Shown here: positions 23,329 to 58,747 of the stretch, piece after piece
Numbering within the stretch: the stretch's first letter is position 1
How the letters are laid out: each line of letters starts with the position of its first letter
NCBI RefSeq assembly: GCF_019744875.1
Contig: NZ_JAIETU010000006.1
Span: 310,001-374,000 of the forward strand
Direction: 5' to 3'
DNA: 64,000 nt
Origin: Hyphomicrobium sp.
GTDB taxonomy: Bacteria; Pseudomonadota; Alphaproteobacteria; Rhizobiales; Hyphomicrobiaceae
Notes under the pieces: model-generated
Seen by the model: the letters and a program-made list of their open reading frames with translations, nothing else
Told to the model about the DNA's origin: nothing
Database searches by the model: none
Program-made: the position numbers and the translations under genes

Positions 23329-24327
23329 TCACTTGTATTCGATAAGCCGGCCTTTGCGACCCATGAGCCGAGTGAGCGCAAACTTGGTGATGCCCGCAAA
23401 TTCCGCGAATTTGCCGGCCACGACCGAGACGGCAAACGGAATAGCGCCTTTGCCCATTTTTGCGCGCCGATAGGCAATTCGGGCGATCTGCGCGGGATAA
23501 ACCAGCGCAACGGCGGCGATCGGCGGATAGATCATAGCGCCGAGGACGATGAGCGCCGGCAGCATGCCGCCCCAAAGGATCGCGCTCGACAGCTCGCGTC
23601 GTTTCAGTTTGTCCGGGCCGTTGCCGTGCAGCTCAGCGAGGGCGGCATACGCGTAGCCGCAGCGCTTGGACCGGCGCCACCATTGCGTCCAGTGCAGGAT
23701 GTTTGCGTCGTGGCGCGTCATTGGGGCGTCGAGCCGCCAGATTTTCCAACCTGCGCCGCGCAGGCGCGCGCACAGCTCCGGTTCCTCTCCGGCGATCATG
23801 TGCTCCGCGAAGCCGCCCACTTGCTGGAAAGCTGAGATGCGGGCCAGAAAGTCCCCACCGCATTCGCGCGCTTCGCCAATGGGCGTGTCCCACTCCATGT
23901 CGCAGAGCGCATTGTAGATGGAGCGCTCCGGGAACTTCTCGCGACGGCGCCCGCAAACGATCGCGACCTCGGGATGGGCAACGAGAAACGCGGTGGCGGT
24001 TGCAAGCCAGCGCTCATCGAGATCGCAGTCGCCGTCCATGAACTGGACGAAGTCGGCGGTCGTGCCGCGCTGCAAGGCAACCGAGACGCCGAGATTGCGT
24101 GCGCGGGCGGCCGAGAACGGTTTGTCCATATCCAGCGCGGCGACAATCGCGCCGGCCCGTTCGGCAGCCTGCACGCTGTTGTCGGTCGAGCCCGAGTCGA
24201 CATAGACGACTGTATTGGCGTCCGGGTGCACCGAGTTCAGAGCGCTGACGAGGCGCGCGCCCTCATTGCGGCCAATGACGACAATGAAGGCTTGCGATGT
24301 GCTGCCTGCTTGCGAACCCGTGCTCAC
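23329..24327 (-). CDS. Glycosyltransferase family 2
   Basis: A 332-residue inverting glycosyltransferase of the GT-A fold: nucleotide-sugar motif VVIGRNEGARL near residue 16, VYVDSGSTDNS (about 41-51), DxD-like MDGDCDLDERW and a later GEEPELCARLR acceptor motif. Two hydrophobic segments near the C-terminus (about 250-290) suggest membrane attachment. The start is GTG at 24327, overlapping the Wzx stop by four bases, so the two are translationally coupled. Sugar and linkage are unknown. Confidence 0.88.
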   Translation of the reverse strand: MSTGSQAGSTSQAFIVVIGRNEGARLVSALNSVHPDANTVVYVDSGSTDNSVQAAERAGAIVAALDMDKPFSAARARNLGVSVALQRGTTADFVQFMDGDCDLDERWLATATAFLVAHPEVAIVCGRRREKFPERSIYNALCDMEWDTPIGEARECGGDFLARISAFQQVGGFAEHMIAGEEPELCARLRGAGWKIWRLDAPMTRHDANILHWTQWWRRSKRCGYAYAALAELHGNGPDKLKRRELSSAILWGGMLPALIVLGAMIYPPIAAVALVYPAQIARIAYRRAKMGKGAIPFAVSVVAGKFAEFAGITKFALTRLMGRKGRLIEYK

Positions 24328-25715
24328 CCGGCGCTCCCGAGGATCGTCCAGAGCTTCTCGATGGGGATGGCATCAAATGCGGTGCCGCCGCCCATTTCGT
24401 AGCGGATTGCAGACATGACGACGATCAACGCAATGAAGATCACTGTGGCGGCTGCGTCCTGCCTCAGGAACGACACGTGCTCGCGCCGTTGCCCGACGGC
24501 AAGCGTAGTGTAGCGGGTGAGGTCGCTGAAGGCGATGACGAGAATCGCGCCGATGAGGCCCGCGGTGTTGAACGCAAGCGGAAGCACTGCGAGGTAGAAC
24601 GCGAGCTTAAGTCCGTTGCCGATGACATTGTAGAACGGCTTGCCAAATCCGAGCAGCGTGTACTCGTTCGTGGAGCAGAGGATGCTGACCCAGCCGCCGA
24701 GCAACAGCAACGTCAGCATCCACGACGCCTCGTGGTAGCGCGCGTCATAGATGAATGTGAAAGCGATGTCGGAAATCGTGATGCCGAACGCCATGGCTGC
24801 GGCAATGGCGATCAGGAGCTTGTAGCGCATCGGCGAGAGGCGTTCGGTGATCTCCTCGCCTTCGCGGTGTCGCGCCGACGAGACGATGGGGAAGATGACC
24901 GAATAGCCGATGCGGGCAGCCAGGAACGTGGGCAGGTCCGCGAGGGCGCGCGCGAGGCCATAGACACCCACGATCGCCAAAGGAGCTACCTTGCCGAGAT
25001 AGAGACGGTCGAAGCTTGCGCACAGGAACGCGAGCATCGACGACAGGAAAATCCATCGCCCGAACGTCACGACCTCGATGGCGATCGCCTTCGAGAACAT
25101 GAACTGGTTCTTGTAGTCGGTGATGATGTAGCTCAGGGCTGCGCGAATAACCTGCGCGATGAGCAGCGAAATCAGCAGGGATTCGATTGTGGGGCTGATG
25201 AAAGCGGCCGCGACGACGATGATGGCGCCGATGACGTCGTTGGCAAGATCGAAGAGGTTCAGGCGCGCGAGGGCGAGATTGCGGTGGAGCAGAAAAATGG
25301 ATGTCGAGGCAAACCCTGTGACCAGCAGCGTGGCGGCGCTGATCTCGATTGCCGAGGCGGGGAGATCATAGAGCCGCCCTAGAGGCGCTGCGCAGAGGAA
25401 GAGGATCACGCCGAGCGCCACGCCGCGCAACATCTGCATGACCCAAACAGTGTTGTAGAAAAGAGGCTCGCCGCCCTTCTTGTTGTTGATAACGTTTTGC
25501 GCAAAACCGACGTCGGAGCTGAGCTCAATACCTTGCCGAATGGTATTGACGATGAGCAGCATTCCAAGCAGTTGCGGGTTAAGCAGTCGCGAGAGAATGA
25601 CGTTCGAGCCGAAGCGTACGATGACCGAAAGGGCGTATGTTCCCGTCGTCCACACGACACCGTGGAGGGCCTGCCGGGTGGAGTTCAACGTCACGCCCTC
25701 GCTGTTATTTACCAA
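24324..25715 (-). CDS. Wzx-type polysaccharide flippase
   Basis: A 463-residue membrane protein with 12-14 hydrophobic helices, of the MOP/Wzx superfamily. It would flip undecaprenyl-diphosphate-linked repeat units to the periplasm. N-terminal ALHGVVWTTGTYALSVIVRFG and LSRLLNPQLLGMLLIVNT are typical of the family. The start is uncertain: 25715 is TTG without a ribosome site, while TTG at 25688 has GCGAGGG well placed upstream and may be the real one. Four-base overlap with the downstream GT2. Pairs with the Wzy-like protein at 41.1 kb. Confidence 0.88.
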   Translation of the reverse strand: MVNNSEGVTLNSTRQALHGVVWTTGTYALSVIVRFGSNVILSRLLNPQLLGMLLIVNTIRQGIELSSDVGFAQNVINNKKGGEPLFYNTVWVMQMLRGVALGVILFLCAAPLGRLYDLPASAIEISAATLLVTGFASTSIFLLHRNLALARLNLFDLANDVIGAIIVVAAAFISPTIESLLISLLIAQVIRAALSYIITDYKNQFMFSKAIAIEVVTFGRWIFLSSMLAFLCASFDRLYLGKVAPLAIVGVYGLARALADLPTFLAARIGYSVIFPIVSSARHREGEEITERLSPMRYKLLIAIAAAMAFGITISDIAFTFIYDARYHEASWMLTLLLLGGWVSILCSTNEYTLLGFGKPFYNVIGNGLKLAFYLAVLPLAFNTAGLIGAILVIAFSDLTRYTTLAVGQRREHVSFLRQDAAATVIFIALIVVMSAIRYEMGGGTAFDAIPIEKLWTILGSAG

Positions 25716-26140
25716 TAGTCATGTTTGATCCATGCCGGCTCGGGTATGGCGCTATCAGGGTCGTACTTCGAGCGATTATCCGAAGTATGACTAATGATGC
25801 GAACGTTCGAGACTGGCGTGGAGATTTCGACGGAAAATGCGTTTGTCCGGCGTCGTGGTCTGAAATGAAAGCTGGGGCAATTGGCCGGCACCGCAACCGG
25901 TCTTGGGACCTTCTCGATAGCAAATGAACCTGCGACTTCATAGGACGCAATTGGGTTCGTTTCGTCGCGCCGGGCACCCCAAGCCGTTAGCTGCCGGTCA
26001 TGTCCGGAGGGGTTATCGAGGCGGGCTCGCGCTCGCGCCATCAATCCGTAATTTAACTCTTGCACACGGGCCTCGGCCGGCGGAGGCAAAACCGCTTCCA
26101 GCCGCACACCCGTCCATAAGGCTATGAAGCGAATTCGATC
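25716..26140. promoter_or_regulatory. Divergent intergenic region with a dyad, wzx / GT4
   Basis: A 425-base region between divergent EPS genes with no supportable ORF. It holds a seven-base perfect dyad TACTTCG-N10-CGAAGTA at 25764-25787, about 50 bases from the wzx start, which is well placed for an operator. I did not find the same dyad in the other EPS promoters that I inspected. Confidence 0.4.
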
Positions 26141-27394: not shown

Positions 27395-29110
27395 TCAACC
27401 GGCCGACGGCGAGGCGTGGACGACGGCTGCCGCCGGGCGGAGCTGTTCCTTGAGATGCCCGGCGAGTCGCAGCGCCAGGGCGACGATCGTCAGGGTCGGG
27501 TTCGCCTGGCTCGAGGTGGGGAACACCGCGGCTCCTGCGATGTAGAGATTGCTCAGGCCATGAACGCGGCAGTTCGGGTCGACGACGCTCGTTCGCGGGT
27601 CGTGCCCCATGCGCGCGGTGCCGATGTGGTGGCCTCCGTATGCGCCGTAGCGGGTCATGTCGTCTTCGACGGCGTCAGGATCGTAGGCAAAGGTGCCGAG
27701 CCCGCAACGCTGGATGTCGTCGGCAAGAAGGCGGACGGCGGTTTTGACGGTTTCGACGTCTTGGCGCGTGTAGCGCCAATCGAGTGAGATCTGCGGCAGG
27801 CCGAGAGCGTCAGTGTCGTTGCCGAGCGTTATGCGGCTGTCCGGATTCGGCATCTGCTCGGCGAGGAAATCGAGGCTGAACAGGTTCGATTTCAACGGCA
27901 CCACGAGCGACGGGATCTTGCGGCTGGCAAGGAAGCGGCCAGTGAGCATCTTGAACGCAAATCGCGTCGCGGCAATGGGCTCCGAGACGACATTTAGGAC
28001 GTGGTGTCCGTACTGGCGAAGCGTCACGGACCCGGCCGCGCGCGTGCGGTACTCCCAGGGAAGCAGCAGGCTACCGAGATAGACGAGCGACAGGATGGCC
28101 GCCTGATGCTCCGGGTCGGCAATGTCCGGATGATGCAGGCGCGCGACGAAGTTGCCGATCTCATGCTGTCGCTGCGGTTTGGGCTCAAGGGCGAACCGCC
28201 GCCGGCAATAGGTGGCGTCGTCGGCGACATCGTAGTCGTGCCAGACGGCCGAGTTGCGATTGATCTTGATGCGGCCGAGCGTGCCTCCGATGTGGCACAT
28301 GTAGTATTTTCCAACGAGGCCGTTTTGGTTGCCGATTCCGTTGGCGTGCACATCGCGGTTCGCCAGAAGCAGCCTCGGCACTTCGAGGCCGCCAGTTGAG
28401 AGCGCGAAAGCGCGGGCCTTTACGGTTGCGGTTTTGCCTTCGAGGTTGCGCAGGCGGACCTCGGTGATGGTGTTGCCCGTATCATCAAAGCAAAACTGGG
28501 TGGCCGTGGCGTGCAGCAGCACGCGCACGTTGGCGGCAGCCAGCGCGTCGCCGTAGCACGCGGCAAAGTTGGTCGGCTTGCTGAAGCGTTCGAGATGATC
28601 GGTCGAGAACGTCGTGCTCTCGAAGCCTTCGATCATCGGCTTCATGGGGCGATCGAACGCTTCGCCGATCGTGTAGGCGAAGGCGCCCGCTTCGCAGATC
28701 CGGTTTGCCTCGCGGTAGAACGGGAGAAGATCGTCGTAGGTCAGCGGCCAGCCGCTGTGGGGCACATAGCTTCTCTGCTCGAAATCGATCGGGTCGAAGG
28801 GCATACAGCGGCCGCCCCACAACACCGTGCTGCCGCCGAACTGGCGCCGGCGAAAGCGGTCGACGGGAGCATGCAGCTTCGGGTTTGCAACGCTGCCGGC
28901 GTACATGCGCTGCACGTCTTCTTCGTAGCGCTGGCCGCCGGACTCGACGAGCAGAACGTCCAGACCTTGATCGATGAACTGAAGCGCGAGCGAAATGCCT
29001 GCGGCGCCCGCGCCGATGATGCACAGGTCCGCTTCGAGACGCTGCCCATCCTCAAGTCCGGCCATGTCGAGGAGCACGTGTCGATACTCGCTGTTCTGGG
29101 GTCGGCACAT
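27395..29110 (-). CDS. GMC family FAD-dependent oxidoreductase
   Basis: A 571-residue flavoprotein. FAD binding is by CIIGAGAAGISLALQF (about 31-46) with VLLVESGG. The GMC active-site His pair is in GGHHIGTARMGHD near the C-terminus, followed by NLYIAGAAVFPTSSQANPTLT. GMC enzymes oxidise alcohols, sugars or alditols. Located 70 bases downstream of the polyprenyl-phosphate sugar transferase on the same strand, so oxidation of a sugar hydroxyl in the repeat unit is a reasonable inference. No signal peptide, so it is cytoplasmic. An internal ATG at 29062 is an alternative start. Confidence 0.88.
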   Translation of the reverse strand: MCRPQNSEYRHVLLDMAGLEDGQRLEADLCIIGAGAAGISLALQFIDQGLDVLLVESGGQRYEEDVQRMYAGSVANPKLHAPVDRFRRRQFGGSTVLWGGRCMPFDPIDFEQRSYVPHSGWPLTYDDLLPFYREANRICEAGAFAYTIGEAFDRPMKPMIEGFESTTFSTDHLERFSKPTNFAACYGDALAAANVRVLLHATATQFCFDDTGNTITEVRLRNLEGKTATVKARAFALSTGGLEVPRLLLANRDVHANGIGNQNGLVGKYYMCHIGGTLGRIKINRNSAVWHDYDVADDATYCRRRFALEPKPQRQHEIGNFVARLHHPDIADPEHQAAILSLVYLGSLLLPWEYRTRAAGSVTLRQYGHHVLNVVSEPIAATRFAFKMLTGRFLASRKIPSLVVPLKSNLFSLDFLAEQMPNPDSRITLGNDTDALGLPQISLDWRYTRQDVETVKTAVRLLADDIQRCGLGTFAYDPDAVEDDMTRYGAYGGHHIGTARMGHDPRTSVVDPNCRVHGLSNLYIAGAAVFPTSSQANPTLTIVALALRLAGHLKEQLRPAAAVVHASPSAG

Positions 29111-32536: not shown

Positions 32537-32886
32537 GTTTTATCCGTGCTGGATCAGGCGTGCTGGATCGGGCGATCGCGTCGCCCTTCGGCGCGATTTG
32601 CGCCTTTAGGATCAGGTCGCCCATGCATGTCACGGGCCATGCTTCTGTGTGGCGGGTCTGGCGGCGAAGCCCCTGGACGCATCACCGCGCAATAACGTTA
32701 ATGTCGGCGACTGCTCTCTTCGGACAATTCTGTACTAGGCCTTTCCAGTCATCTTAGCCATACCTAGGCAAAATTCACGGCGTGATCCCAGGGTGCCTGG
32801 ACCAAATCGGCCATGGTGCAGATATTGCTTTAGTAATTTCACATGGCGGAAGACCCGCTGTCTAGCCACAAGCGAGGGGCTTGAAG
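32537..32886. promoter_or_regulatory. Divergent promoter, aldo/keto reductase / NRPS
   Basis: A 350-base region. Next to the reductase start lies a 14-base tandem repeat, CGTGCTGGATCAGG (32545-32558) then CGTGCTGGATCGGG (32559-32572), overlapped by the dyad GGGCGA-TCGCG-TCGCCC (32570-32586). Both could bind a regulator. Towards the NRPS the sequence turns AT-rich (from about 32690) and GAGGGG at 32874-32879 is the NRPS ribosome site. Confidence 0.5.
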
Positions 32887-38276: not shown

Positions 38277-38336
38277 ACCGGGTTGCGGACGCGCGCGTCA
38301 GGATCGACAGATTGCGTGCACAGTTGGAGAGGTTCA

Positions 38337-48023: not shown

Positions 48024-51000
48024 TCAAACCAGCATGTCCTCGGGAATCTTGACGCTCTTGTCGGTGCGGCGCTTGCGCAGTGCTTCGTTCAGATGGGCCG
48101 CGAGCAGGCGGACGTTGGGTTCGAGAACCATGGCGTCGTGGTCGCCGGAGACCTCCTTGATCGTCAGAGACGTGACGTAAGGAGACCACCCGTTGTCGGC
48201 TTTCAAAAGGTTGCGCGTGGCGTGCAGCAGGCGGCCGTCGCGCAGTTTGTAGGTGACTTCGAGCTTGGGCCGCAGCAACAGCACCGGGCCATCGTAGGGG
48301 CGCGCACGGTAGCGTCCGAGCGCGCGCCGGAAGGCCGCTTCAATCTTCTCGTTATGAAATTCTTCCGGCGCGTGCTCCGCCTGGGTGCGAGACTTTCTGA
48401 ACCTCGCCAGTTCCCATTCGATACGCCTGCGCACCCACCGCCCGACGAAGGCGCCCTTGTCGCGGCGCATGTCCTGCAGCTTGATCGTGACTTTGTCTTC
48501 GAAGGTGATCGGCGTGTCTTCCGGATACGGCGTGTCGAGCAAGACGAGCAGGTCGACGCGCTCTCCCATGCTCTTCAGAATCTGCGCCATTTCGTAGGCC
48601 ACCAATCCGCCGCCCGAAAAGCCGCTGAGGAGGTAGGGGCCGTGCGGTTGGACGGCGCGCACGTCCTTGAGATAGCTCGCGGCCATCTCCTCGAATGTCT
48701 CGTGCGGTTCCTGGTCTCCGTAGAGGCCCTGAGCCTGCAACCCGTAGACCGGGCGCTCGCGGCCGACCTGCAGCGCCAGGTGCCGCAAGTTGAGGATGTT
48801 GCCGAACATGCCCGCGCAGACGAACAGCGGCGTCGCGTGGGGATTACGCCCCGTGTGCATTTGGACGAGGTGCGTGGGATGGCTCGTCGTTTCGACGCTT
48901 GGCGCTTCGGATGCGGTTGCGGCATCCGGCTCGGCCTGGCGGGCGCCGCTGCGTTCGAGCAACTGGGCGCATTGCGCGATGGTCTGCGCGTCGAACAGCA
49001 CGGAGATCGGAAAATCGACGGAGTACGTCTTCTTGATCATGCGGAACAGCCGCACGGCGACCAGCGAATGGCCGCCAAGATCGAAGAACGAGTCGTTGAT
49101 GCCGATCTTGTCGATGCCGAGCAGCTCCGACCAGAAGCCGGCAAGCGTCTTTTCGATTTCGGTCGTCGGCGCGATAAACTCCGCCGTGATGTTGGGACGG
49201 TCGAGCCCGGACATGTTGCTCGTGGCGCGCTCGCCCGATTGTGCGGCGTTCTTCTGCAGAAGGTGCAGATCCATGGAGCTCACGACGATCTGCGGCAGGC
49301 CGGTGGCCACGGCGCGGCGAAGCGCTTCGCCGCCCTTCTCGGGGTCGATGCCTTGCTCGACCAGGGTCGCAAGCCGCGCCATTGCAGACGAAACCTCGCG
49401 CTCGGTATGGTCGCTGCCTTCGACGAGGACTGCGCCGTGCGTGTCGGTCAACGAGATCGCGCTCTCGCCGTCGGCCTTGAGGTGCTTGATCGTGAAGCCT
49501 TCGATGACCGCCACGACGTGGCCGGTCTCGTCGGTGAGCGTGACATCGAATGTCGCAAAGCCCTGGCCGAAATTTGCGTCCTTGGCGAGGGTCGCCACGC
49601 TCCAGACCGTTGCCGGCAGATCGCCGTAGAGGCGGACGGATCGATACTGGGCCGGAACCCAGAGCCCTGCGGCAGGGTCGTAGCCGGGGATCAGCTCCAT
49701 TGCATATCCGGTCGCGATGTCGAGCAGGGCCGGATGGACGGCCAGGCCGCGCGCGATATCACGCCGGAAAGCGTCATCGAGCGCCAGGCGCGCGACGGCC
49801 ACGTCCTGTCCGACGGACGTTTCGCGCAGGACTTGCCAGCGCGGTCCGAAGCGCAGGTGGCGATCCTGGGCGGCCGGCATCGCCCGTCCGCCGTCGCTCT
49901 TCATCTCGCTCTTGGTGCTCGCGACAACCATCTTGATGTCGACCGGTCGAGGGCGTTGTTCGCGTTCCCTCGACGCATTGGCCTCCGCGTGACGGAGCCA
50001 GGCGGGACCCTTCGGCGTGTTGACGAGGCTTTCGACGGCAAACCGAATTTGCTTGGCGTCGGGATTGGCGAGCACGCGGATTTTGCGCACGTCGCCGTCC
50101 GGGACATGCAGCGGCCGCAGGAACGTCAAGTCGCTGACGTGCACGGGGCCCTGGATGCCGTACTCGCGTGCGGCTTCGACGATCAGCTCGAGATAGCCGG
50201 TGCCGGGCCAGACGGCCTCGCCCGTGCGCAGCCGGTGCTCGTTCAGCAGCCAGTCCCGCGACGGGTCGGCGTGCAGCTCCAGCCAGTCGCTCGCGCCCTG
50301 GCGCGTGCGGTTTTCGAAGAGGGGTTGGGATACGGCCGTAACGGTTGCCTGCGGGGCGCCGCTTTCGGCGCTGTGCACCGCGCGGGCGGCAATGCCGACG
50401 TCACTCCACAAGCCCCAATGAATGGCCACCACCGACGTCTTGTTGTCCGTGCGGCTTTCGGCAAAGGCGTTGAGATAGGCGTTCGCGGCCACGTAGTCGA
50501 CCTGGCCGGCCGGCGCGATGTCGGTGCTCGTGGACGAGAACAGAACGAAGACGTCGAGGTTTTCGTCCTTCAAGGCTTCGTCCAGTACGATCGTGCCTAG
50601 GACTTTCGGCGCAAGCACGTCTTCAATGCCGGCCGCCGTCTTGAGCTGAATGAGGTCGTCGTTGACGATGCCGGCAGCATGCAGCACGCCGTTCACCGTG
50701 CCGAACTTCGATTTGATCGTCGCGACGGCTTCGCGCATCATTTCAGGATTGGTGATGTCCGCGCGCACATAAAGAACGTCGCCGCCGGCGTTCTCAATGT
50801 CGCGTATTGCGGAGATCGCGCGTCCGACCGGGGATTTCTTCTCGCGCGCAATGAGCTCGTCGTTCCACGTCGCCCGATCGGGAAGCTCAAGGCGGCCGAT
50901 GAGGGCGATGCGTGCCGAGAAGTTCTGCGCGAGATCGAGAGCGCAGCGGAGAGCCAGATCACCGAGGCCGCCGGTAATGAGATAAACGCCATGCTCGCGG

Positions 51001-54000
51001 AAGTGGCTGTCGCGCGGGCTCGCGGGGTCGAGCCGGACTTCGCGGTAAGCGCGAACCAGACGGCGTCCGTTGCGATAGATGATGATGTCGTTCGAGGGAT
51101 TGGCGAAGATATCCTCGAGCAGAAGGTCCGCGACCCAGTCTTTCGACCAGTCGCGAGATTGCACGTGCGCGATCTCTTTGATCGCCTGCTCCGCGCGCGC
51201 AACGAGCGCGGATGTGCGGCGCAGCGCGGCCGACGGAATGTCGATCGTGCAGACCTTTACGTTGGGCATTTCCCGCGGCAGGACCTGCACCGGACCGAGC
51301 ACGGTCGCCTTCTCGGGATAGGGGAGTCCTTCATCGCCGAGGCGCTGGGCGCCGTTGGTCAGAACCGTGATCGCAACGTTGCCTTCCACTTCGCCAAGCG
51401 CCTGGGCGAGACAGACCAGGCTGTAGAGGCCTCTCTCCTGATTGCGATGGAAGAAGCTGGAGCCGGGGCGGAAGCTCTCTTCGGCGGTCAGCAGCCAGGC
51501 GTGAATGATGCGGGTGGGGAACCTGCCGGTGGCGGCGAGATCCTTGAACAGCGCATCGTATCCTTGGCGGCCGAGCTCGGCACATAGAGTGTAACTGCCG
51601 TCCGTCCGTGCGGAGTAGGCATCGCCGTGCGTGACCGTCGTGACGAGACTACCCTTCGCACGCAGGGCGGTGACGATGCGCTCGCCGAAGCCGGTGTCGT
51701 CGAGGAAGATGAGATAGGACATTGGCCCGGCTTCCGCCGTTGCAGGCGCTTCCGGATAGGCGGGCTTCCAGACAGGCGCCCAGCCCCAGTTCGCCATGTC
51801 TTCCAGCTTGGAGGGCGTGACCTCTTCCGGCGCGGTGTCGGCAACGCGTTCGATAAAGTAGTGCTGGTGCTGGAAGGGATAGGACGGCAAGCGCACGCGG
51901 CGCGGTTCGGCGGCCTGCGACAGGCGCTCGATCGGCAGCGGCAGCCCCGTCGCCCATGCCCGCCCCAGTGCGGTGAGGAAATACAGATGGTCGTCCTCAT
52001 GCTGCTCGGCATGCGGGAGCGTGCTGAGGGTCGCGTTGGCGTCGATGCCCTGCGCCTTTGCGAGCGAGGAGAGCGTTTTTCCGGGACCAGCCTCGATGTA
52101 GAGCAACGTCTGGGACGCGGCGAGTTTGCTCATGCCCTCGGAGAAGCGTACCGTCGACCGCAACTGGCGGACCCAATACAGCGGGTCGCACGCCTCGGCG
52201 GCCGTCATCTGGTCGCCGGTGAAGTTGGAGATGATGGGGATCTGCGGGGCTGAGAGCGCGGTCTGCCTCAGGAACGCTTCGAAGCGGCCGAGGATCGGCT
52301 CCAGCATGCGCGAGTGCGCGGCGATATTGATGGGCACGCGGGTGGCTTCGATGCCGTCGGCGGCCAGCGACTCGTGGAATGCCGCGAGCTCTTTTTCCGG
52401 GCCTGAGGCGACACACAACTCGGGCGCGTTGATCACTGCCAGATCGAGGGTATCGGGGAGGCGCGCGCGCAAGCTCTCGACGTCGATTTGCACGCTCAGC
52501 ATGCCGCCGCCGGTGATCTCGTCGAAAAGCTCGCCGCGGAGCTGAACCAGGCGGACTGCCGATTGGAACGTCATGACCTGCGCGATGCAGGCGGCGGCGT
52601 ATTCGCCCATCGAGTGGCCGATGAGCGCTACGGGCTTGATGTTCCAGCTCTGCAGCAGGCGTGCGAGGGCGACCTCGATGATGAGGATGGCCGGCAACTG
52701 CAGCGATGGCTTGAGGAGTTCCTTTGCCGCTTCGTCCTTGGGGACGGAGGAGCCGAGCCAAAGCTCGCGGATGCGTTTGCCGAGCGCTTCGGGGAGATAG
52801 GACAGTCCCTCGTCGACGGTCTTGGCGAAGATGGGCTCGTGCGCGTAAAGGCTGCGCCCCATGCCGGGGTATTGGGCGCCGCCGCCGGGGAACATCAGCA
52901 CGGCGCCGCTCAGGCCTTCGATCGGCGTGTGAGTCGCGCCACGGCGCAGGTCGGGCTGGCCCAACGCCGCGATGGCGTCGTCGCGGTCGGCGACGGCCAC
53001 GACGCGGCGATGCTTGAAGACGCGCCGTCCGTTTACGAGTGTGTGCGCGACGTCTTCAATGCGCAGGTCCGGCTTTGCTGCGAGATGCTTGGCAAGCCGC
53101 TCGCAGCTCTCGTCGAGCGCCTTGCGCGAGCGCGCGCTCGTGACGAGAATCTGAGGACCGGAGGAGGCCTTTCGCGTCTCGGCGCGCGTGGGCGCCTCTT
53201 CTACGATGGCGTGCGCGTTCGTGCCGCCAACGCCCAGCGAATTGATGCCGGCGCGCCGCGGCGTGGCCGTGCGCGGCCAGGGCAGCAGCTTGTCGGCGAC
53301 GGCGAACGGGCTTGTGTCGAAATCGATTGCCGGATTGGGCGCCTCGTAACCGAGGCTCGGGGGGATTTCGTCGTTCTCGAGCGACAGCACCGCTTTGATC
53401 AGGCTGACGACGCCGGCAGCCGTGTCGAGATGGCCGATATTGGATTTTACGGAGCCGATCCGGCAGTAGCCACGCTTTTTGGTCGAGAGCTGGAAGGCCT
53501 GCGTCAGCGCGGCGACCTCGATCGGATCGCCGATGCTGGTGCCGGTGCCGTGGCATTCGACGTATTGGATCGTGTCTGCGGTCACGCCCGCGAGCGCCTG
53601 CGCCTCGACGACCGCTTCGGCCTGTCCCGTCACGCTGGGGGCGAGGTAGCTGACCTTGCCGGCGCCGTCGTTGTTTATGGCTGTCGCCCTGATCACGCCG
53701 CGGATCGGATCGCCATCGGCGAGTGCATCCTCCAGGCGCCGCAGCACGACGACACCGACGCCGCTGCCGAACACGGTGCCGGCTGCGCGATGATCGAACG
53801 CGCGGCAGTGCCCGTCCGGAGACAGGATCTCGCCTTCCTGGAACAGATAACCACGGCCATGCGGCAGTTCGATCGTGACGCCACCGGCAAGCGCCATGTC
53901 GCACTCGCCGTTGAGAAGGCTCTGGGCCGCGTAGTGGACCGCGACGAGCGACGTCGAGCACGCCGTCTGGACGTTGACGCTGGGCCCATGCAGATCAAAA

Positions 54001-54500
54001 ATGTACGACGCGCGCGTCGCGAGGAAGTCCTTGTCGTTGCCCGTGTGGCGCAGCAGGAACATGCCGACCTGATCGACAAGCTGCCGGTTGCTGCAGACGT
54101 TGAAATAGAAGTAGCTGCCCATGCCGCAGCCGGCGAAGACGCCGACAGGGCCGGTGTTGCGCTCGGGGGGACGGGTTGCGTCCTCCATCGCTTCCCATGC
54201 GCACTCCAGGAACTGGCGATGCTGCGGGTCCATGATGGCGGCGTCTTTCGGGCTGAAGCCGAAAAACTCCGCATCGAAGTCCGCCATGCCGGGCAACCGG
54301 GCGGTTCGAGGCACGTAGTTCTTGCGCCGCGAACGATCCAGAGATTCGCCGGCAGCCGCGAGCTCCTCGGGCGAGCAATCCTCGATCGACTCCTTGCCCG
54401 CACGCAAGTTGTTCCAGAACTCTTCGGCGTTCTTGGCGCCGGGCACGCGCAGTGCCAGTCCGATAATCGCGATGTCGCTGGTGTTCGACACTTGTCCCAC
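48024..54500 (-). CDS. Type I polyketide synthase KS-AT-KR-DH-ACP-TE
   Basis: A 2158-residue single-module synthase. KS (about 8-435) has C181 in TACSTS, H317 in ECHGTGT and H357 in NIGHLD. AT (about 533-830) has S630 in GHSMGEY and H729 in AAHS; the malonyl/methylmalonyl diagnostic is not clear. KR (about 1165-1380) has LITGGLGDLAL, S1323, Y1336 and N1340. DH (about 1405-1680) has H1422 in EHRLRTGEAVWPG and D1594 in HPALLD. ACP Ser1812 is in LGGHSL. TE (about 1885-2145) has S1962 in GFSGGG, D1989 and H2121. KR precedes DH, the reverse of the textbook order. The terminal thioesterase implies product release here. Start GTG 54500. Partner of the NRPS at 32.9 kb, which lacks a thioesterase. Confidence 0.95.
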   Translation of the reverse strand: MGQVSNTSDIAIIGLALRVPGAKNAEEFWNNLRAGKESIEDCSPEELAAAGESLDRSRRKNYVPRTARLPGMADFDAEFFGFSPKDAAIMDPQHRQFLECAWEAMEDATRPPERNTGPVGVFAGCGMGSYFYFNVCSNRQLVDQVGMFLLRHTGNDKDFLATRASYIFDLHGPSVNVQTACSTSLVAVHYAAQSLLNGECDMALAGGVTIELPHGRGYLFQEGEILSPDGHCRAFDHRAAGTVFGSGVGVVVLRRLEDALADGDPIRGVIRATAINNDGAGKVSYLAPSVTGQAEAVVEAQALAGVTADTIQYVECHGTGTSIGDPIEVAALTQAFQLSTKKRGYCRIGSVKSNIGHLDTAAGVVSLIKAVLSLENDEIPPSLGYEAPNPAIDFDTSPFAVADKLLPWPRTATPRRAGINSLGVGGTNAHAIVEEAPTRAETRKASSGPQILVTSARSRKALDESCERLAKHLAAKPDLRIEDVAHTLVNGRRVFKHRRVVAVADRDDAIAALGQPDLRRGATHTPIEGLSGAVLMFPGGGAQYPGMGRSLYAHEPIFAKTVDEGLSYLPEALGKRIRELWLGSSVPKDEAAKELLKPSLQLPAILIIEVALARLLQSWNIKPVALIGHSMGEYAAACIAQVMTFQSAVRLVQLRGELFDEITGGGMLSVQIDVESLRARLPDTLDLAVINAPELCVASGPEKELAAFHESLAADGIEATRVPINIAAHSRMLEPILGRFEAFLRQTALSAPQIPIISNFTGDQMTAAEACDPLYWVRQLRSTVRFSEGMSKLAASQTLLYIEAGPGKTLSSLAKAQGIDANATLSTLPHAEQHEDDHLYFLTALGRAWATGLPLPIERLSQAAEPRRVRLPSYPFQHQHYFIERVADTAPEEVTPSKLEDMANWGWAPVWKPAYPEAPATAEAGPMSYLIFLDDTGFGERIVTALRAKGSLVTTVTHGDAYSARTDGSYTLCAELGRQGYDALFKDLAATGRFPTRIIHAWLLTAEESFRPGSSFFHRNQERGLYSLVCLAQALGEVEGNVAITVLTNGAQRLGDEGLPYPEKATVLGPVQVLPREMPNVKVCTIDIPSAALRRTSALVARAEQAIKEIAHVQSRDWSKDWVADLLLEDIFANPSNDIIIYRNGRRLVRAYREVRLDPASPRDSHFREHGVYLITGGLGDLALRCALDLAQNFSARIALIGRLELPDRATWNDELIAREKKSPVGRAISAIRDIENAGGDVLYVRADITNPEMMREAVATIKSKFGTVNGVLHAAGIVNDDLIQLKTAAGIEDVLAPKVLGTIVLDEALKDENLDVFVLFSSTSTDIAPAGQVDYVAANAYLNAFAESRTDNKTSVVAIHWGLWSDVGIAARAVHSAESGAPQATVTAVSQPLFENRTRQGASDWLELHADPSRDWLLNEHRLRTGEAVWPGTGYLELIVEAAREYGIQGPVHVSDLTFLRPLHVPDGDVRKIRVLANPDAKQIRFAVESLVNTPKGPAWLRHAEANASREREQRPRPVDIKMVVASTKSEMKSDGGRAMPAAQDRHLRFGPRWQVLRETSVGQDVAVARLALDDAFRRDIARGLAVHPALLDIATGYAMELIPGYDPAAGLWVPAQYRSVRLYGDLPATVWSVATLAKDANFGQGFATFDVTLTDETGHVVAVIEGFTIKHLKADGESAISLTDTHGAVLVEGSDHTEREVSSAMARLATLVEQGIDPEKGGEALRRAVATGLPQIVVSSMDLHLLQKNAAQSGERATSNMSGLDRPNITAEFIAPTTEIEKTLAGFWSELLGIDKIGINDSFFDLGGHSLVAVRLFRMIKKTYSVDFPISVLFDAQTIAQCAQLLERSGARQAEPDAATASEAPSVETTSHPTHLVQMHTGRNPHATPLFVCAGMFGNILNLRHLALQVGRERPVYGLQAQGLYGDQEPHETFEEMAASYLKDVRAVQPHGPYLLSGFSGGGLVAYEMAQILKSMGERVDLLVLLDTPYPEDTPITFEDKVTIKLQDMRRDKGAFVGRWVRRRIEWELARFRKSRTQAEHAPEEFHNEKIEAAFRRALGRYRARPYDGPVLLLRPKLEVTYKLRDGRLLHATRNLLKADNGWSPYVTSLTIKEVSGDHDAMVLEPNVRLLAAHLNEALRKRRTDKSVKIPEDMLV

Positions 54501-54631: not shown

Positions 54632-56407
54632 TTAGCGGCCGGACTTTTCTGCGGTCTTCGGTGGTGGCGTTTCATCGGCGCGTTTGCCGCCGTGCGCCTC
54701 GAGCAGAACCCTGATCGGAGGCACGGGCGTGGGCCGAGGAAACGCGAGCTGAAGCACTTTATTCGTCCATTTCTTTCCCTGCTTTGTCGCTTTTGCAGCA
54801 GGCGCGATGGCGATGGTGCGCGTCGGCGACGACGTCTTCGTGCCGTTCTGGCGCGAGGCGAACGCCGTCTGTGCTGACAGCGTCCACTTCGCCTCGGCCG
54901 CATCGACCTTGTTCAGGACAGTGCCGAGGAGGCGCTCCTGGACGGGCGCAAGCGACTTCAGGCCCACCTGGATGTCCTGGGACGAGACCTGCTCCCAGCC
55001 CACCACGAGGAAGAAGCCGTCGATGTACCGTGCCGCAGACCTGAGATCGGCATTCATGCCCAGGGTCGGAAGATCGAAGATGACGTAGTCGTAGGCCGTC
55101 GCGGCCTCATCCAGGAAGCGGCGGATGCCGTCCGTCCAGATGTTGGCGGGGTGCGCGCCGCGGTCTGCGCCGAGGGGGAGGAAATGAAGCCCCGTTCGCC
55201 GCTCGACCATCGTGAACCGATCGAGCGACTTGTCCTCGGCCAGGTAGTTGGTGAGGCCGGCGCGCTCGCCGCCGTAAAAGGCCGAGAGCGCCGGGTCGAA
55301 GGCGTCGGCATCGACGAGAAGCACGCGGTGGTTGGCGACAGCGAGGGCGAGGGCCAGATTGGTCGCGATCGTCGAGCGCCCTTCGCCCGCGAACGTCGAC
55401 GTGACGCCGATGAACCGGACCCCCTGGCCGCCGAAGCCGGCCTGACAGGCGCCAATCGCCGTGCGGATCGTGTGCCACGCGTTCGAGCCCGGCGCATCGA
55501 TGACGAACGTCTGCACGGGGCAGTCAGCGCGGAACGTGTTGCCGATGGGCCCACTTTTCGGGCGCGCGGGTGCGGTAGGCAGTTGCGGAAACTGCCCAAG
55601 GCATCTCACGCCGGTGATGGCGGCGGCATCCTCGGGCGATCTCACCCGGCCGTCCAGGAGGCGCCACATCAACGCTACGAACGCGGCGAGACACGCGCCC
55701 ACCAGTCCGGCGGCCGCGATGATCAGGATGCCGCGCACGTTGCTCTTGTGCGGAGGCGGCAGGGCTTCCGCGATGACGCGCGCCTTCGGTCCCACCTCGC
55801 GCAGCTTCTCGCGCAGCCAGCTGCTTCCGGATTGAGCGGAGTCCGAGCGTGAGGCCTGCAGTTCGGCCATGTAGGCGGTCGCGATCCCGTTGGCGACGCG
55901 CGCTGCCAAGGCGGGGTCTTTCGCCTCATAGTAAATCTGGACGACGTTGCTCTGGCCTGCGCGATCGACGCCGTATACGCGGCGCAGCGCTTCCAGGGCT
56001 TCGACCCGTTTCTGGACAGTCGACTGCGGGTTGAGCAGCCCCAAAGTGGTCAGCGCGCTGAGCGCGACCCGGTCCGACCGAATGACCTGGAGCTGTGTTT
56101 CCAAGAATGCGGGATCAGGCTGCGTCTCGACGAAGAACGCATCTTCGCGGCTGAACGTCAGGCGCAGGTTTGTGAGCTGCAACTGCGTCGACGCGAGATA
56201 GGTCGCGGGCCGCATGACGACGAAAATGGCAGCGAGCGCCATCAGAATTGTTGGGACGGCGATGATGAACCAGCGGCGCTGAAGCACAGCGTCGATCATC
56301 CAGCGAATGTCGATCTCGCCGGCTCCCGCTCCGCTGTCGTCGTTGACGCTGGCAACTTGTTCATTGCCCCTTTGCAGCATCGCCATGTGCCTCCGTGACA
56401 CACTCAT
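54632..56407 (-). CDS. Wzz-like chain-length protein with degenerate BY-kinase domain
   Basis: A 591-residue inner-membrane protein of the Wzz/ExoP type: transmembrane helices at about 47-65 and 227-248 flanking a short periplasmic region (about 70-225), then a cytoplasmic P-loop domain (about 295-510). Walker A reads AGEGRST (340-346), so the invariant Lys is Arg344; Walker A-prime LLVDADAFDPAL (363-374) is normal. The C-terminus has no Tyr cluster. It probably sets EPS chain length and contacts the export pore but may not be an active tyrosine autokinase. It starts five bases after the ExoF-type gene. Confidence 0.87.
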   Translation of the reverse strand: MSVSRRHMAMLQRGNEQVASVNDDSGAGAGEIDIRWMIDAVLQRRWFIIAVPTILMALAAIFVVMRPATYLASTQLQLTNLRLTFSREDAFFVETQPDPAFLETQLQVIRSDRVALSALTTLGLLNPQSTVQKRVEALEALRRVYGVDRAGQSNVVQIYYEAKDPALAARVANGIATAYMAELQASRSDSAQSGSSWLREKLREVGPKARVIAEALPPPHKSNVRGILIIAAAGLVGACLAAFVALMWRLLDGRVRSPEDAAAITGVRCLGQFPQLPTAPARPKSGPIGNTFRADCPVQTFVIDAPGSNAWHTIRTAIGACQAGFGGQGVRFIGVTSTFAGEGRSTIATNLALALAVANHRVLLVDADAFDPALSAFYGGERAGLTNYLAEDKSLDRFTMVERRTGLHFLPLGADRGAHPANIWTDGIRRFLDEAATAYDYVIFDLPTLGMNADLRSAARYIDGFFLVVGWEQVSSQDIQVGLKSLAPVQERLLGTVLNKVDAAEAKWTLSAQTAFASRQNGTKTSSPTRTIAIAPAAKATKQGKKWTNKVLQLAFPRPTPVPPIRVLLEAHGGKRADETPPPKTAEKSGR

Positions 56408-56412
56408 ACAGA

Positions 56413-57660
56413 TTAACGGGTTTTGACGGTGGCGGCAGGCGAATTGTCCGTCTGCTTCTTTTCTTGATTTCGTTGAATAATTTTAATTTCTTGAGGGCGA
56501 AGAACCTTGAGAATGTCGCCGGGTTCGAGTGGTGTGGTCTCCGCCGCTTTTACTTCGCGGGCTTGGCCGTTCTGCTGGCGAATGATCTCGTACGTCGGTT
56601 CGCCGTCGACGCTTTCCGAACCCAGGGAGCTCGACGATCCCAGAACGTCGTCTGCGGTCGAAATCTGTTGCTCCAATTCCTTGCGCTGGCCCTCGGTGGT
56701 CTGCAACTCCGACAAGGCCGTGCTGCGGCGCTCGTCCTTGAGCGCTTCACGCTGCATCTTGGTGTTATTCTTCTGCTGGCGAGAGCGCATGATCGCGGTC
56801 GCGATTTCCTTCTGCTCGCGTTCGATCTGCGCGAGTGCGCGCTCAATCGGAAGCAGGCGCGGCGGAAGCGCGAGTGAGCGCGCGATCAGGCCGCGCACGT
56901 CGTCGAGCTCCTTCTTGATGGACACTTCCTGCTTGCGAGAGGCCGTGATCTGGTCTTCCAGAGAGGCGATCTCGCCGTCCAGCAGCGCCATGGTATCGCC
57001 GTACGCGTTGTACTGGTGGCGGAAGTGCTCGAAGCGCGCAGTGAAGAGTGTACGCTCCTGGTCGAGAAATCCGGAAGCCGCGAGCGCGGAATCCTGCGGT
57101 TTGGGATCGAACGTTTCCGCCCCCTCCAGCTCGGCCTTCAGCCGCATTTCCTTGGCCTGAAGCGCGAGCAACTGGCTGGCGCCGATCCGCACCTGACCGC
57201 GCGCGGCGATGGCGTCGCGCTCGGTGTTCCAGCCCAAGCGATAGAGCCCGCCGGCGATGGCCACGGCATTCAGAACGAGCATGTTGGGGCGGTATTCATA
57301 TGCGCCCGGACGCTCGACGCTGCCCAGGATGTAGAAGGGCCGAAACGTCACGATGTCGACGGTCGTCTCGGGCGGATTGTCGAGCCGGGCCTTCTCCAAC
57401 AACCGCTGGGCGATGTCGAGGGCGAGCTGCGTGATGTCTTTGCCTTGCGCGGGAACGGCGCCGACAAACGGAAGGTTCAGCGATCCGTTCGCGCCGACCG
57501 TGAATTCGCCCGTAAGAATTGGCCATTCGTGCACATAGACGCGCACGCGGTCTTGCGAGCCAAGGTGATAGGGCGCGTGTTCTTCTGCCTGAACGCGAGA
57601 AGTAGTGCTGAAAGCAGCGGCCAGGAGGACAAGTAAGATGAACAATTTTGTCCGGGTCAT
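56413..57660 (-). CDS. Polysaccharide export protein (OPX, ExoF type)
   Basis: A 415-residue exported protein with signal peptide (about 1-25, ending VQA). The Poly_export domain comes first (about 30-125; YHLGSQDRVRVYVHEWPIL), then a SLBB-like repeat with VERPGAYEYRPNM. A long charged coiled-coil (about 200-345) follows, and a second export-type domain at the end (LEPGDILKVLRP). The coiled coil and lack of a lipobox Cys match rhizobial ExoF rather than Wza. It would form the periplasmic/outer-membrane conduit with the Wzz-like protein encoded five bases downstream. Confidence 0.88.
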   Translation of the reverse strand: MTRTKLFILLVLLAAAFSTTSRVQAEEHAPYHLGSQDRVRVYVHEWPILTGEFTVGANGSLNLPFVGAVPAQGKDITQLALDIAQRLLEKARLDNPPETTVDIVTFRPFYILGSVERPGAYEYRPNMLVLNAVAIAGGLYRLGWNTERDAIAARGQVRIGASQLLALQAKEMRLKAELEGAETFDPKPQDSALAASGFLDQERTLFTARFEHFRHQYNAYGDTMALLDGEIASLEDQITASRKQEVSIKKELDDVRGLIARSLALPPRLLPIERALAQIEREQKEIATAIMRSRQQKNNTKMQREALKDERRSTALSELQTTEGQRKELEQQISTADDVLGSSSSLGSESVDGEPTYEIIRQQNGQAREVKAAETTPLEPGDILKVLRPQEIKIIQRNQEKKQTDNSPAATVKTR

Positions 57661-57907
57661 GTCGCTAGTAAACCTCTACGCGGGCTGGCAAATGGTTACT
57701 GCGCGCCCTTGCTTTCACAGCAAGACCACTCAAGCACCGCGAATTTCTCTGCAAATACCGTACCCATTTTTCATTGGCCGAGGTGCCATAGTTCTGGGTT
57801 TGGTTAAAGAGCGACCGCCTTGATCGGCCGGCAGTTAAATCACTAAAAAACATCTCAGTTTCTGTCAGGCCGATGCTCAAAGTTAATGGTTTCGACGTTG
57901 ACGATAT
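57661..57907 (-). promoter_or_regulatory. Intergenic region upstream of the export gene
   Basis: 247 bases, relatively AT-rich, between wecG-like and exoF-like genes of the same strand. Long enough for a separate promoter for the exoF-wzz-PKS-asnB unit. No motif recognised. Confidence 0.35.
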
Positions 57908-58747
57908 TCAAGTTCCCGCCTCTTCATTTGCTGCGCTGCGGCGCCTGTTTCGCCAGCTTTCCCATTCGATTTCAGCGAGCAGCTTGGCGCACTTTGCGTA
58001 GCGCGGGGCGAGGCGGCGCGGTTCGCTCATTAAGCGCCATAGCCATTCCACGCCAAAGCGCCGAAACCCCTTAGGGGCGCGTGTTGCCCGGCCGGACAGG
58101 AAATCGGCGGCGGCTCCGACGCAGACGAAGCAGCATTTGAGCCCCTGGCGCTGGGCGCGGGCGGCAAAAAGTTCCTGTTTTGGTGCGCCGAGGAGCACAA
58201 AGCAGATCTTTGCGCCGGACTTGCGAATGTCCTCGATATACTGGTCGGCCAGCGCGCTCTCGACGTCGAAATTGCGCGGGGGGGCGATGCTGCCGGCGAT
58301 CACGAGACGTCCGCCGCTTGCGTCGGACAGCACCTTCTCCGTCGCAGTCAGGACTTCGGTGGAACTCCCGAACAGGAAAATGGAATGGCCGGCATCGGCC
58401 GCCGCTTTGGTTAACGGCAGCATGAGATCCGAGCCGGCCGTGAGCTGCAGGTCTTTCCAGGTCCGCCGGCCGATGTAGACGATCGGTGCGCCGTCCGCGC
58501 TCACGAAGGTCGCCTGCCGGTAGGCTTCGCGGAACTTGCTGTCGCTGCGCAGCTTGACCAGGTGGTCGAGATTCAAGGTGAAGAAGGTGCTGCCCTCGCC
58601 GCGGGCAATGGAGGCGAGGATCGAGGAAATCGACATGTCCTCGTTCGCCATATTGACGCGCCATCCGTCCACATCAGCACTCGCAGACGTCATTGCGTTT
58701 CGTTCTCTAACTGTTGCGGCCGGCCGCAAACAGCCAAGCGTATCCAT
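57908..58747 (-). CDS. WecG/TagA/CpsF family glycosyltransferase
   Basis: A 279-residue GT26-type transferase (261 if the ATG at 58693 is used). Family motifs: FFTLNLDHLVKL, FVSADGAPIVYIGR, FLFGSSTEVL, CFVLLGAPKQE and the C-terminal APKGFRRFGVEWLWRLMSEPRRL. Such enzymes add the second sugar (often ManNAcA or a related sugar) to polyprenyl-PP-linked acceptors. The caulobacter holdfast protein HfsJ belongs to this family, so a holdfast-like or free EPS role is possible. Start of the minus-strand EPS series. Confidence 0.9.
   Translation of the reverse strand: MDTLGCLRPAATVRERNAMTSASADVDGWRVNMANEDMSISSILASIARGEGSTFFTLNLDHLVKLRSDSKFREAYRQATFVSADGAPIVYIGRRTWKDLQLTAGSDLMLPLTKAAADAGHSIFLFGSSTEVLTATEKVLSDASGGRLVIAGSIAPPRNFDVESALADQYIEDIRKSGAKICFVLLGAPKQELFAARAQRQGLKCCFVCVGAAADFLSGRATRAPKGFRRFGVEWLWRLMSEPRRLAPRYAKCAKLLAEIEWESWRNRRRSAANEEAGT

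What the first reader, a model, noticed from the sequence alone, without database searches (positions are those of the whole stretch)
23329..58747. EPS locus with an NRPS-PKS assembly line built into it
A full Wzx/Wzy exopolysaccharide set shares transcription units with a one-module NRPS and a one-module PKS. NRPS, methyltransferase, GH9-like and Wzy genes lie in series on the plus strand. ExoF, Wzz, PKS, amidotransferase, GT2, GT4 and SGNH genes lie in series on the minus strand, converging on the first with a 16-base overlap. This interleaving is stronger than mere adjacency. Inference: the assembly line makes a small acyl or amide group that is attached to the polysaccharide, or a compound exported along with it. 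I know of no described system of exactly this composition, but I could not search.
Basis: partly seen in the sequence, partly recalled or inferred. Interest (0 to 1): 0.85.

Follow-up and report, generated by a model that had tools for sequence, protein, structure and literature searches.

The report
Polysaccharide locus with built-in NRPS-PKS
A bacterial slime-polysaccharide gene cluster carries its own two-protein assembly line that probably makes a small glycine-and-malonate-derived group, and related clusters with the same combination recur in many other bacteria, so the assembly line probably decorates the polysaccharide.

Summary
The window (a Hyphomicrobium relative) holds a Wzx/Wzy-type EPS locus, 23329-58747, with one NRPS and one PKS among its genes. 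The PKS is KS-AT-KR-DH-ACP-TE. Of 80 related loci, 76 have the PKS and 70 have EPS machinery, against 1 of 20 arbitrary stretches. In Rhodobacterales the core is often one operon, PKS-GT2-NRPS-PPTase, inside EPS loci. In the window's genus the same 4 of 8 genomes have NRPS, PKS and a Wzx homologue. NRPS and PKS co-diverge (r = 0.95). Three luciferase-type NRPSs without formyltransferase that I examined sit in ordinary metabolite clusters. Against a strict link: a diverged group includes stand-alone NRPS-PKS pairs (two genomes of one genus; one Anaerolineae MAG). Best reading: the pair makes an N-formyl(hydroxy)glycyl-polyketide acyl group placed on the EPS repeat unit, perhaps by the TE. Product and attachment are inferred, not shown. 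My searches found no paper describing it. New variant of a known kind; interest 0.72.

The parts
32881..37548 (+). NRPS loading module: formyltransferase - adenylation domain (glycine-type code DILQYGMIWK) split by luciferase-like monooxygenase (TIGR04020) - PCP; no condensation domain
   Evidence: Pfam, NCBIfam, alignments
37629..38276 (+). SAM methyltransferase (Methyltransf_11); sits where many relatives have a PPTase
   Evidence: Pfam; homologues in 3 related loci by blast
38283..41105 (+). GH9-like glycoside hydrolase
   Evidence: Pfam; homologues in L011, L025, L029 and G006
41116..42480 (+). Wzy/O-antigen-ligase-type polymerase
   Evidence: PF04932
42465..43652 (-). SGNH-like protein (GHSL ... 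DxxH, hydrophobic N-terminus); homologue of the gene after PPTase in many relatives
   Evidence: (weak DUF4886)
43661..44890 (-). GT4 glycosyltransferase
   Evidence: PF00534
44928..45941 (-). GT2 glycosyltransferase (no homologue found in the other loci)
   Evidence: gene, PF00535, blast
46016..47971 (-). AsnB-like glutamine amidotransferase
   Evidence: PF00733/PF13537; TIGR03108 below cut-off
48024..54500 (-). single-module PKS: KS-AT-KR-DH-ACP-TE, catalytic residues present
   Evidence: Pfam, alignment
54632..56407 (-). Wzz chain-length protein with ATPase domain
   Evidence: PF02706/PF01656, NCBIfam
56413..57660 (-). outer-membrane polysaccharide export protein (ExoF/Wza-like)
   Evidence: PF02563/PF10531
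57908..58747 (-). WecG/TagA/CpsF glycosyltransferase
   Evidence: PF03808
23329..24327 (-). GT2 glycosyltransferase with homologues in 43 related loci
   Evidence: blast
24324..25715 (-). Wzx flippase
   Evidence: PF13440/PF01943
26141..27349 (+). GT4 glycosyltransferase with homologues in 46 related loci
   Evidence: gene, Pfam, blast
27395..29110 (-). GMC oxidoreductase
   Evidence: PF05199
29181..30629 (-). polyprenyl-phosphate sugar phosphotransferase (initiating enzyme)
   Evidence: PF02397/PF13727
30980..31621 (-). F420/NADP oxidoreductase-like; membership in the locus uncertain
   Evidence: PF03807; no homologue in related loci
31733..32536 (-). aldo/keto reductase; membership in the locus uncertain
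   Evidence: PF00248; no homologue in related loci

Best explanation
A Wzx/Wzy EPS locus with a dedicated two-protein NRPS-PKS that makes an acyl building block for the polysaccharide. SHOWN: gene content, domain order, catalytic residues present, glycine-type code, conserved linkage. INFERRED: (1) a PPTase (beside the NRPS in most relatives, outside the window in this genome) activates PCP and ACP; (2) the A domain loads glycine, the FT domain formylates it, and the luciferase-like domain hydroxylates its alpha carbon; (3) the PKS adds malonate (at least one round), and KR and DH give a short hydroxylated or unsaturated acyl chain capped by formamide; (4) the TE moves the chain onto a sugar of the lipid-linked repeat unit, as the TE of Pks13 does onto trehalose, or releases an acid that another enzyme attaches; (5) Wzx flips the acylated unit, Wzy polymerises it, and Wzz with the Poly_export protein carry it out. 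The SGNH-like protein, with a hydrophobic N-terminus, may transfer or trim acyl groups outside the inner membrane.
For: Domains. Code DILQ[MFLYC]GM[IV]W in 96 of 96 aligned NRPSs, final Lys in 94 with 2 gaps. In solanimycin a glycine-type A domain with a flavin monooxygenase insert goes with alpha-hydroxyglycine (PMC10204066, passages). Linkage: of the 80 best loci from genome contigs (580 relatives confirmed, 80 kept), PKS in 76, EPS machinery in 70, two or more kinds of it in 58, any GT in 73, PPTase in 55; 1 of 20 arbitrary 20-kb stretches has such machinery. At the same 20-kb width 47 of 80 loci have EPS machinery, 18 of 80 two or more kinds, 69 of 80 a GT. In 37 of 80 the NRPS lies directly between a GT2 and a PPTase on one strand. 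Own genus: NRPS, PKS and Wzx in the same 4 of 8 genomes, none at the thresholds used in the other 4. G006 has the same set within about 50 kb. Co-divergence NRPS-PKS r = 0.948, n = 73, 0 of 999 permutations as high. Deinococcus actinosclerus (another phylum): separate FT homologue, A-LLM-PCP and PKS in an EPS locus. Three examined luciferase-type NRPSs without FT (Nostoc, Streptomyces, Burkholderia glumae) lie in ordinary metabolite clusters. Pks13 TE ligates acyl to trehalose (PMC9900942, passages); the window TE matches Pks13 TE at 54 bits.
Against: The pair also occurs without EPS neighbours: G411 and G349 (no seed hits), one genus; L094, Anaerolineae; L020, whose plasmid's only PF13440 flippase is about 78 kb away. 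So the pair can presumably work alone. No MBOAT or AT3 acyltransferase is among the annotated genes of the window locus. The window's own GT2 beside the PKS (44928-45941) and its AsnB have no homologue in the other loci, and the GT2 23332-24327 is missing from G006 at the threshold used, so not every part is conserved. The TE is closer to an NRPS TE (66.6 bits) than to Pks13 and could simply hydrolyse. No product is known. The control is small (20 stretches, chosen at round coordinates), and the 80 loci are the closest relatives, mostly Alphaproteobacteria. In the class sample (8 genomes besides G000), 5 have plain EPS loci, G297 has Wzz, GT4 and UDP-sugar dehydrogenase neighbours, 2 have none.
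Confidence: 0.58

Rival explanations
1. The NRPS-PKS makes a free small metabolite (signal, metal binder or antibiotic) that is merely co-expressed with EPS, for example kept in the matrix or used as a biofilm signal.
For: The pair stands alone in G411, G349 and L094; the TE could hydrolyse; some loci carry an extra NRPS, such as C-A-PCP-TE in Paracoccus liaowanqingii.
Against: In the main clade the operon contains a GT2 between PKS and NRPS (37 of 80 with GT2 and PPTase directly flanking the NRPS); no dedicated small-molecule exporter was among the genes identified in the window locus; presence and absence go with a Wzx homologue within the genus.
Confidence: 0.22
2. The PKS-derived acyl group is a lipid-like primer or anchor for the polysaccharide, as I recall being proposed for RkpA/WcbR in capsule loci.
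For: Capsule clusters of rhizobia and Burkholderia hold a type I PKS, rkpA/wcbR (PMC3908369, passages).
Against: The NRPS supplies a small polar starter, and no ER domain was found in the PKS to make a saturated chain; the locus already has a Bac_transf initiating enzyme.
Confidence: 0.08
3. Hitch-hiking: EPS loci are exchange hot spots and the NRPS-PKS is carried along without functional link.
For: Loci lie on plasmids in several hosts, and EPS gene sets vary between loci.
Against: The operon order recurs across Rhodobacterales, and the linkage is seen also in Rhizobiales, a Myxococcales MAG and Deinococcus; three FT-less relatives examined are not in EPS loci.
Confidence: 0.07

Closest known systems
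Wzx/Wzy-dependent exopolysaccharide loci (ExoF/Wza, Wzz, sugar phosphotransferase)
   Same: Wzx, Wzy-type, Wzz-ATPase, Poly_export, Bac_transf, GT2, GT4 and WecG all present
   Different: Carries a dedicated NRPS and PKS, often with its own PPTase in relatives
RkpA/WcbR type I PKS in capsular polysaccharide clusters
   Same: A type I PKS inside a polysaccharide cluster (PMC3908369, passages)
   Different: Here with a formylating glycine-type NRPS and a Wzx/Wzy machinery; sequence relationship to RkpA not tested
Formylating initiation module of linear gramicidin synthetase (LgrA)
   Same: FT-A-PCP order (for LgrA recalled); FT region hits LgrA at 28 bits; closer to FT-A starters of Mycetohabitans and Sinorhizobium, 189 and 185 bits
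   Different: Luciferase-like domain inside the A domain, glycine-type code, partner PKS in an EPS locus
Glycine modules with flavin monooxygenase insert (myxothiazol, melithiazol, solanimycin)
   Same: Glycine-type A domain with luciferase-like insert; alpha-hydroxylation deduced there (PMC10204066, passages)
   Different: Those belong to metabolite clusters and extend a chain; here a loading module with formyltransferase
Pks13 of mycobacteria
   Same: PKS whose TE puts an acyl chain on a sugar (PMC9900942, passages)
   Different: Different substrates and context; similarity of TE only 54 bits
Exosortase A (XrtA/PEP-CTERM) EPS loci
   Same: AsnB-like amidotransferase and an adenylating enzyme beside EPS genes
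   Different: TIGR03108 357 bits against cut-off 817, TIGR03098 218 against 592; no exosortase among the genes identified

Membership tests
Wzx/Wzy-dependent EPS locus | flippase, Wzy polymerase, chain-length protein, outer-membrane exporter, initiating sugar phosphotransferase, GTs | tested here: met
   Pfam; main family of each above its curated cut-off
Formylating NRPS initiation module | FT with catalytic Asn/His/Asp, A and PCP, no upstream C domain | tested here: met
   catalytic residue roles recalled
MupA/Atu3671 luciferase-like NRPS domain (TIGR04020) | score above curated cut-off | tested here: met
   475.6 bits against 244.45
Myxothiazol/solanimycin-type glycine hydroxylating module | condensation domain of an elongation module | tested here: not met
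   no C domain
Myxothiazol/solanimycin-type glycine hydroxylating module | alpha-hydroxylation of the glycyl residue | not testable with these tools
   needs biochemistry; code and insert agree
RkpA/WcbR capsule PKS | orthology to RkpA/WcbR | not tested
   no RkpA sequence at hand; paper passages only
XrtA/PEP-CTERM EPS locus | exosortase and XrtA-type amidotransferase above cut-off | tested here: not met
   TIGR03108 below cut-off; no exosortase among the genes identified (no dedicated exosortase search)
Acylated polysaccharide made by NRPS-PKS | product covalently on the polymer | not testable with these tools
   needs NMR/MS

The most novel reading that the evidence does not exclude
A widespread class of bacterial exopolysaccharide whose repeat unit contains a polyketide-peptide residue made by a dedicated assembly line (N-formyl-alpha-hydroxyglycine extended by malonate) and put on the lipid-linked sugar before flipping. 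The hemiaminal or aldehyde chemistry that alpha-hydroxyglycine allows could make the polymer reactive or self-crosslinking, which would suit surface-attached bacteria.
Probability: 0.3. Interest if true: 0.88.

Novelty: new variant of a known kind. Interest (0 to 1): 0.72.

Why it matters
It would join two fields usually kept apart, assembly-line natural products and polysaccharide biosynthesis, in a common group of bacteria. PKS/NRPS clusters of such bacteria are reported from genome mining without a product (passages); if those of this kind decorate EPS, the product should be sought on the polymer and not only in the medium. The prediction is testable by two deletions and an EPS NMR in ordinary laboratory marine or soil strains.

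Tried and rejected
Considered and set aside: (a) XrtA/PEP-CTERM locus: scores below cut-offs and no exosortase identified. (b) A sugar formyltransferase fused by chance: the FT's best solved relatives are sugar formyltransferases (ArnA 67.6 bits), but it is closer to FT-A starters of ordinary NRPSs (189 and 185 bits; a different program and database), and the Deinococcus relative keeps an FT homologue as a separate gene beside A-LLM-PCP. Formylation of an amino sugar is not excluded. (c) Chance adjacency. (d) N-hydroxylation giving an N-formyl-hydroxamate, hadacidin-like (recalled), as metal binder: possible, less likely because the studied inserts of this kind are held to hydroxylate carbon. 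(e) ORFs 25709-26512, 26513-27346 and 44887-45885 as genes: taken as shadows. Led nowhere: sequence search of the SGNH family in solved structures (one hit at E 0.41); promoter/terminator scan; literature searches for the combination listed no paper that I recognised as describing it, and I opened passages of only six papers. The library is open-licence papers only.

Weak spots of my counts: annotation of flanks used phmmer seeds from the window and five annotated plasmid loci (L011-L014, L019), E 1e-6, so unrelated EPS genes are missed. The ten loci of 80 counted as without EPS machinery: L021, L024, L030, L032, L053 are contigs under 14 kb; L049 has a Wzx by Pfam; L040 has one about 300 bases beyond its end and L052 perhaps one on the same 54-kb contig (assuming contig numbers follow the record names); L082 reaches a contig end inside the PKS, and its other flank showed formate-dehydrogenase-like genes, not EPS genes; L094 truly lacks them in the fetched stretch. 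I did not correct the count for these. The control stretches were taken at round coordinates from 10 genomes, 2 each. Dropped rows: L001, L002, L003, L018 were left out of the printed comparison and, and L001, L003, L018, L021; the PKS alignment keeps 73 of 88 loci with any PKS hit (full-length only). The tree is a quick one, rooted at the midpoint for drawing.
Full report
WHAT IS THERE. The window lies in a 4.5-Mb genome of the genus of Hyphomicrobium zavarzinii: the NRPS of the same-genus genome G004 (L007) is identical in the tree to that of H. zavarzinii ATCC 27496 (L022). Between 23329 and 58747 is a Wzx/Wzy-type EPS locus. I re-called genes by codon usage and annotated them with Pfam and NCBIfam. 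Gaps inside the two series are 5 to 131 bases with the starts given in parts; co-transcription itself is inferred.

THE ASSEMBLY LINE. The NRPS (1555 aa as annotated) is formyltransferase, adenylation domain interrupted after the stretch I take as core motif A4 by a luciferase-like monooxygenase (TIGR04020, 475.6 bits, cut-off 244.45), and PCP. No condensation domain was found, so it is a loading module. Its specificity code reads D-I-L-Q-Y-G-M-I-W-K; across 96 of 96 aligned sequences it is DILQ[MFLYC]GM[IV]W, with the final Lys in 94 and gaps in 2. This is close to the glycine code that I recall (DILQLGLIWK); positions were mapped by eye. The PKS (2158 aa) is KS-AT-KR-DH-ACP-TE; the residues I take as catalytic (KS C181, H317, H357; AT S630; KR Y1336; DH H1422, D1594; TE S1962, H2121) are each kept in at least 90% of 73 full-length relatives. 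AT choice (malonyl or other) is not clear from its motif (AAHS). The DH motif has one residue more between His and Gly than the pattern I recall.

HOW CONSERVED; the NRPS at E 1e-100 is in 8 of 60 genomes, G000 itself among them; in 9 of 387 genomes drawn from the class, G000 among the nine; 48 plasmid records match, 17 over at least 80% of the query. Of these 80: PKS 76, any glycosyltransferase 73, any of Wzx/Wzy/Wzz/PGT/Poly_export/WecG 70, two or more kinds 58, PPTase 55. Of 20 arbitrary 20-kb stretches, 2 from each of 10 genomes that have the NRPS, 1 had such machinery and 1 a GT. Cut to the same 20-kb width, the test loci give 47 of 80 with EPS machinery, 18 of 80 with two or more kinds and 69 of 80 with a GT; much of that width is NRPS and PKS. 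The typical Rhodobacterales operon is PKS-GT2-NRPS-PPTase, often followed by the SGNH-like gene; a member of the SGNH family is in 33 of 97 loci, the window among them. In 37 of 80 loci the NRPS has GT2 directly before and PPTase directly after it on one strand. In the window the PPTase place is taken by a methyltransferase; the two PPTase-family hits of this genome lie outside the window, one about 15 kb past its end. The window's GT2 beside the PKS is not a detectable homologue of the conserved operon GT2.

GAIN AND LOSS AS A UNIT. In the window's genus 8 genomes are held. NRPS (E 1e-100), PKS (E 1e-150) and Wzx (E 1e-40) are all in G000, G001, G004 and G006 and in none of the other four, one of which is only 88% complete. 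The GT2 23332-24327 is in three of the four and not in G006. In G006 the SGNH, Wzz, Wzx, Poly_export, PGT, GT4, MT, GH9, Wzy, NRPS, PPTase, PKS and WecG homologues lie within about 50 kb. NRPS and PKS distances correlate at r = 0.948 (73 loci, 0 of 999 permutations reach it); NRPS against WecG, PGT, Wzx and PPTase gives 0.756, 0.677, 0.67 and 0.552 (39, 26, 46 and 64 loci). These figures do not correct for shared descent.

BEYOND ALPHAPROTEOBACTERIA. Hydrogenophaga (L036) and a Myxococcales MAG (L044) have NRPS and PKS with EPS genes. On a Deinococcus actinosclerus plasmid an A-LLM-PCP protein and a PKS sit among capsule/EPS genes, and the gene just before encodes a separate formyltransferase homologue.

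EVIDENCE AGAINST A STRICT LINK. A supported group of 8 rows apart from the other 96 (SH-aLRT 97, midpoint root) includes L094 (Anaerolineae; neighbours GlgB, ABC transporters, aldehyde dehydrogenase), G411 (neighbours zinc ABC transporter, TPP enzyme, GST, MFS), G349 (same genus as G411, no seed hits besides NRPS and PKS) and L020 (only PF13440 flippase of the plasmid about 78 kb off), but also L010, L017 and G297, which have Wzz, Wzx or other EPS genes nearby, and L091 with a Wzy-like gene. The pair can therefore exist without EPS neighbours. In the class sample, leaving out G000, 5 of 8 have full EPS loci, 1 of 8 (G297) has Wzz, GT4 and UDP-sugar dehydrogenase nearby, 2 of 8 have none.

SPECIFICITY CONTROL. 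Three NRPSs with the same luciferase-like domain and no FT match in the fetched stretch (Nostoc, Streptomyces, Burkholderia glumae) lie in NRPS/PKS clusters without annotated EPS genes. I examined only these three of the FT-less plasmid hits, besides Deinococcus. FT-A starters without a match over the luciferase domain (Mycetohabitans, Sinorhizobium) are in long NRPSs. The EPS link seems to belong to FT with A-LLM-PCP and its PKS partner.

MECHANISM. From the solanimycin paper (PMC10204066, passages read): a glycine-type A domain with a flavin monooxygenase insert is held responsible for alpha-hydroxyglycine, and in myxothiazol and melithiazol the carbinolamide is then cleaved. Applied here, the loading module would make N-formylglycyl- or N-formyl-alpha-hydroxyglycyl-PCP. 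The PKS would extend it with malonate and reduce or dehydrate it. A formamide cap suits a terminal decoration. A TE that transfers to a sugar has a precedent in Pks13 (PMC9900942, passages). The chain length (one or more rounds) and fate of the hydroxyl are unknown. The SGNH-like family, hydrophobic at its N-terminus with GHSL and DxxH motifs, has no significant solved relative by sequence.

LITERATURE. Searches listed no paper that I recognised as describing the combination. Phaeobacter inhibens T5 has a PKS (Inhi_1972) and an NRPS (Inhi_1974) two locus tags apart, listed without function in the passages I saw (PMC4062626); that these are this system is my inference. A PKS-NRPS-like hybrid cluster is mentioned in Sulfitobacter faviae (PMC10221251, passages), and a PKS and an NRPS-like cluster without known relatives in Tritonibacter mobilis (PMC11225332, passages). 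Capsule clusters with a PKS (rkpA/wcbR) are known (PMC3908369, passages), which is why I rate this a new variant and not categorically new.

VERDICT. A real, conserved and, as far as my searches go, undescribed hybrid locus. Functional coupling to EPS is well supported; covalent attachment to EPS is the best guess at about 0.58.

Noticed in passing
window 42465-43652 and 35 other ORFs in 32 further loci (e.g. L013:25321-26256): A SGNH-like protein family that Pfam recognises only weakly as DUF4886 and that has no significant solved relative by sequence, travelling with the NRPS-PKS.
   Followed up: partly
L125:9002-13057 (Paracoccus), L129:668-4546, L036:18768-24770 (Hydrogenophaga), G001:C2 near 797897 and G004:C1 near 486222: Some of these EPS loci carry a second NRPS: C-A-PCP-TE in Paracoccus liaowanqingii, and in Hydrogenophaga a two-module protein that begins with an A/DIP2-like domain. 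The acyl group may vary between strains.
   Followed up: partly
L126:12773-25558 (Deinococcus actinosclerus plasmid): Formyltransferase homologue, A-LLM-PCP and PKS as separate neighbouring genes in a capsule/EPS locus of another phylum.
   Followed up: partly
plasmid loci such as L011-L014, L019, L020, L128, L129: In several Rhodobacterales and Rhizobiales the locus is on plasmids; XrtD (VPLPA-CTERM exosortase) is annotated near it in Ruegeria conchae (L013) and Aliiroseovarius (L020).
   Followed up: no
L015:13177-19691, L047, G349:C1:888489-893000: Some copies look broken: PKS split over two overlapping ORFs in Rhizobium sp. BG6, PKS in five ORFs in a Gemmobacter MAG, one in-frame TGA in the G349 NRPS match. 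They may be sequencing errors or decay; left as they are.
   Followed up: no
window 46016-47971: The AsnB-like amidotransferase inside the PKS series has no homologue in the other loci compared; an AsnB-like hit appears near the locus in G271.
   Followed up: no
window 17567-22570 and 58936-64000: Flanks look unrelated: TonB receptor, LysR regulator, SLAC1 channel, cation efflux, MOSC, PQQ dehydrogenase and GntR/aminotransferase genes.
   Followed up: no
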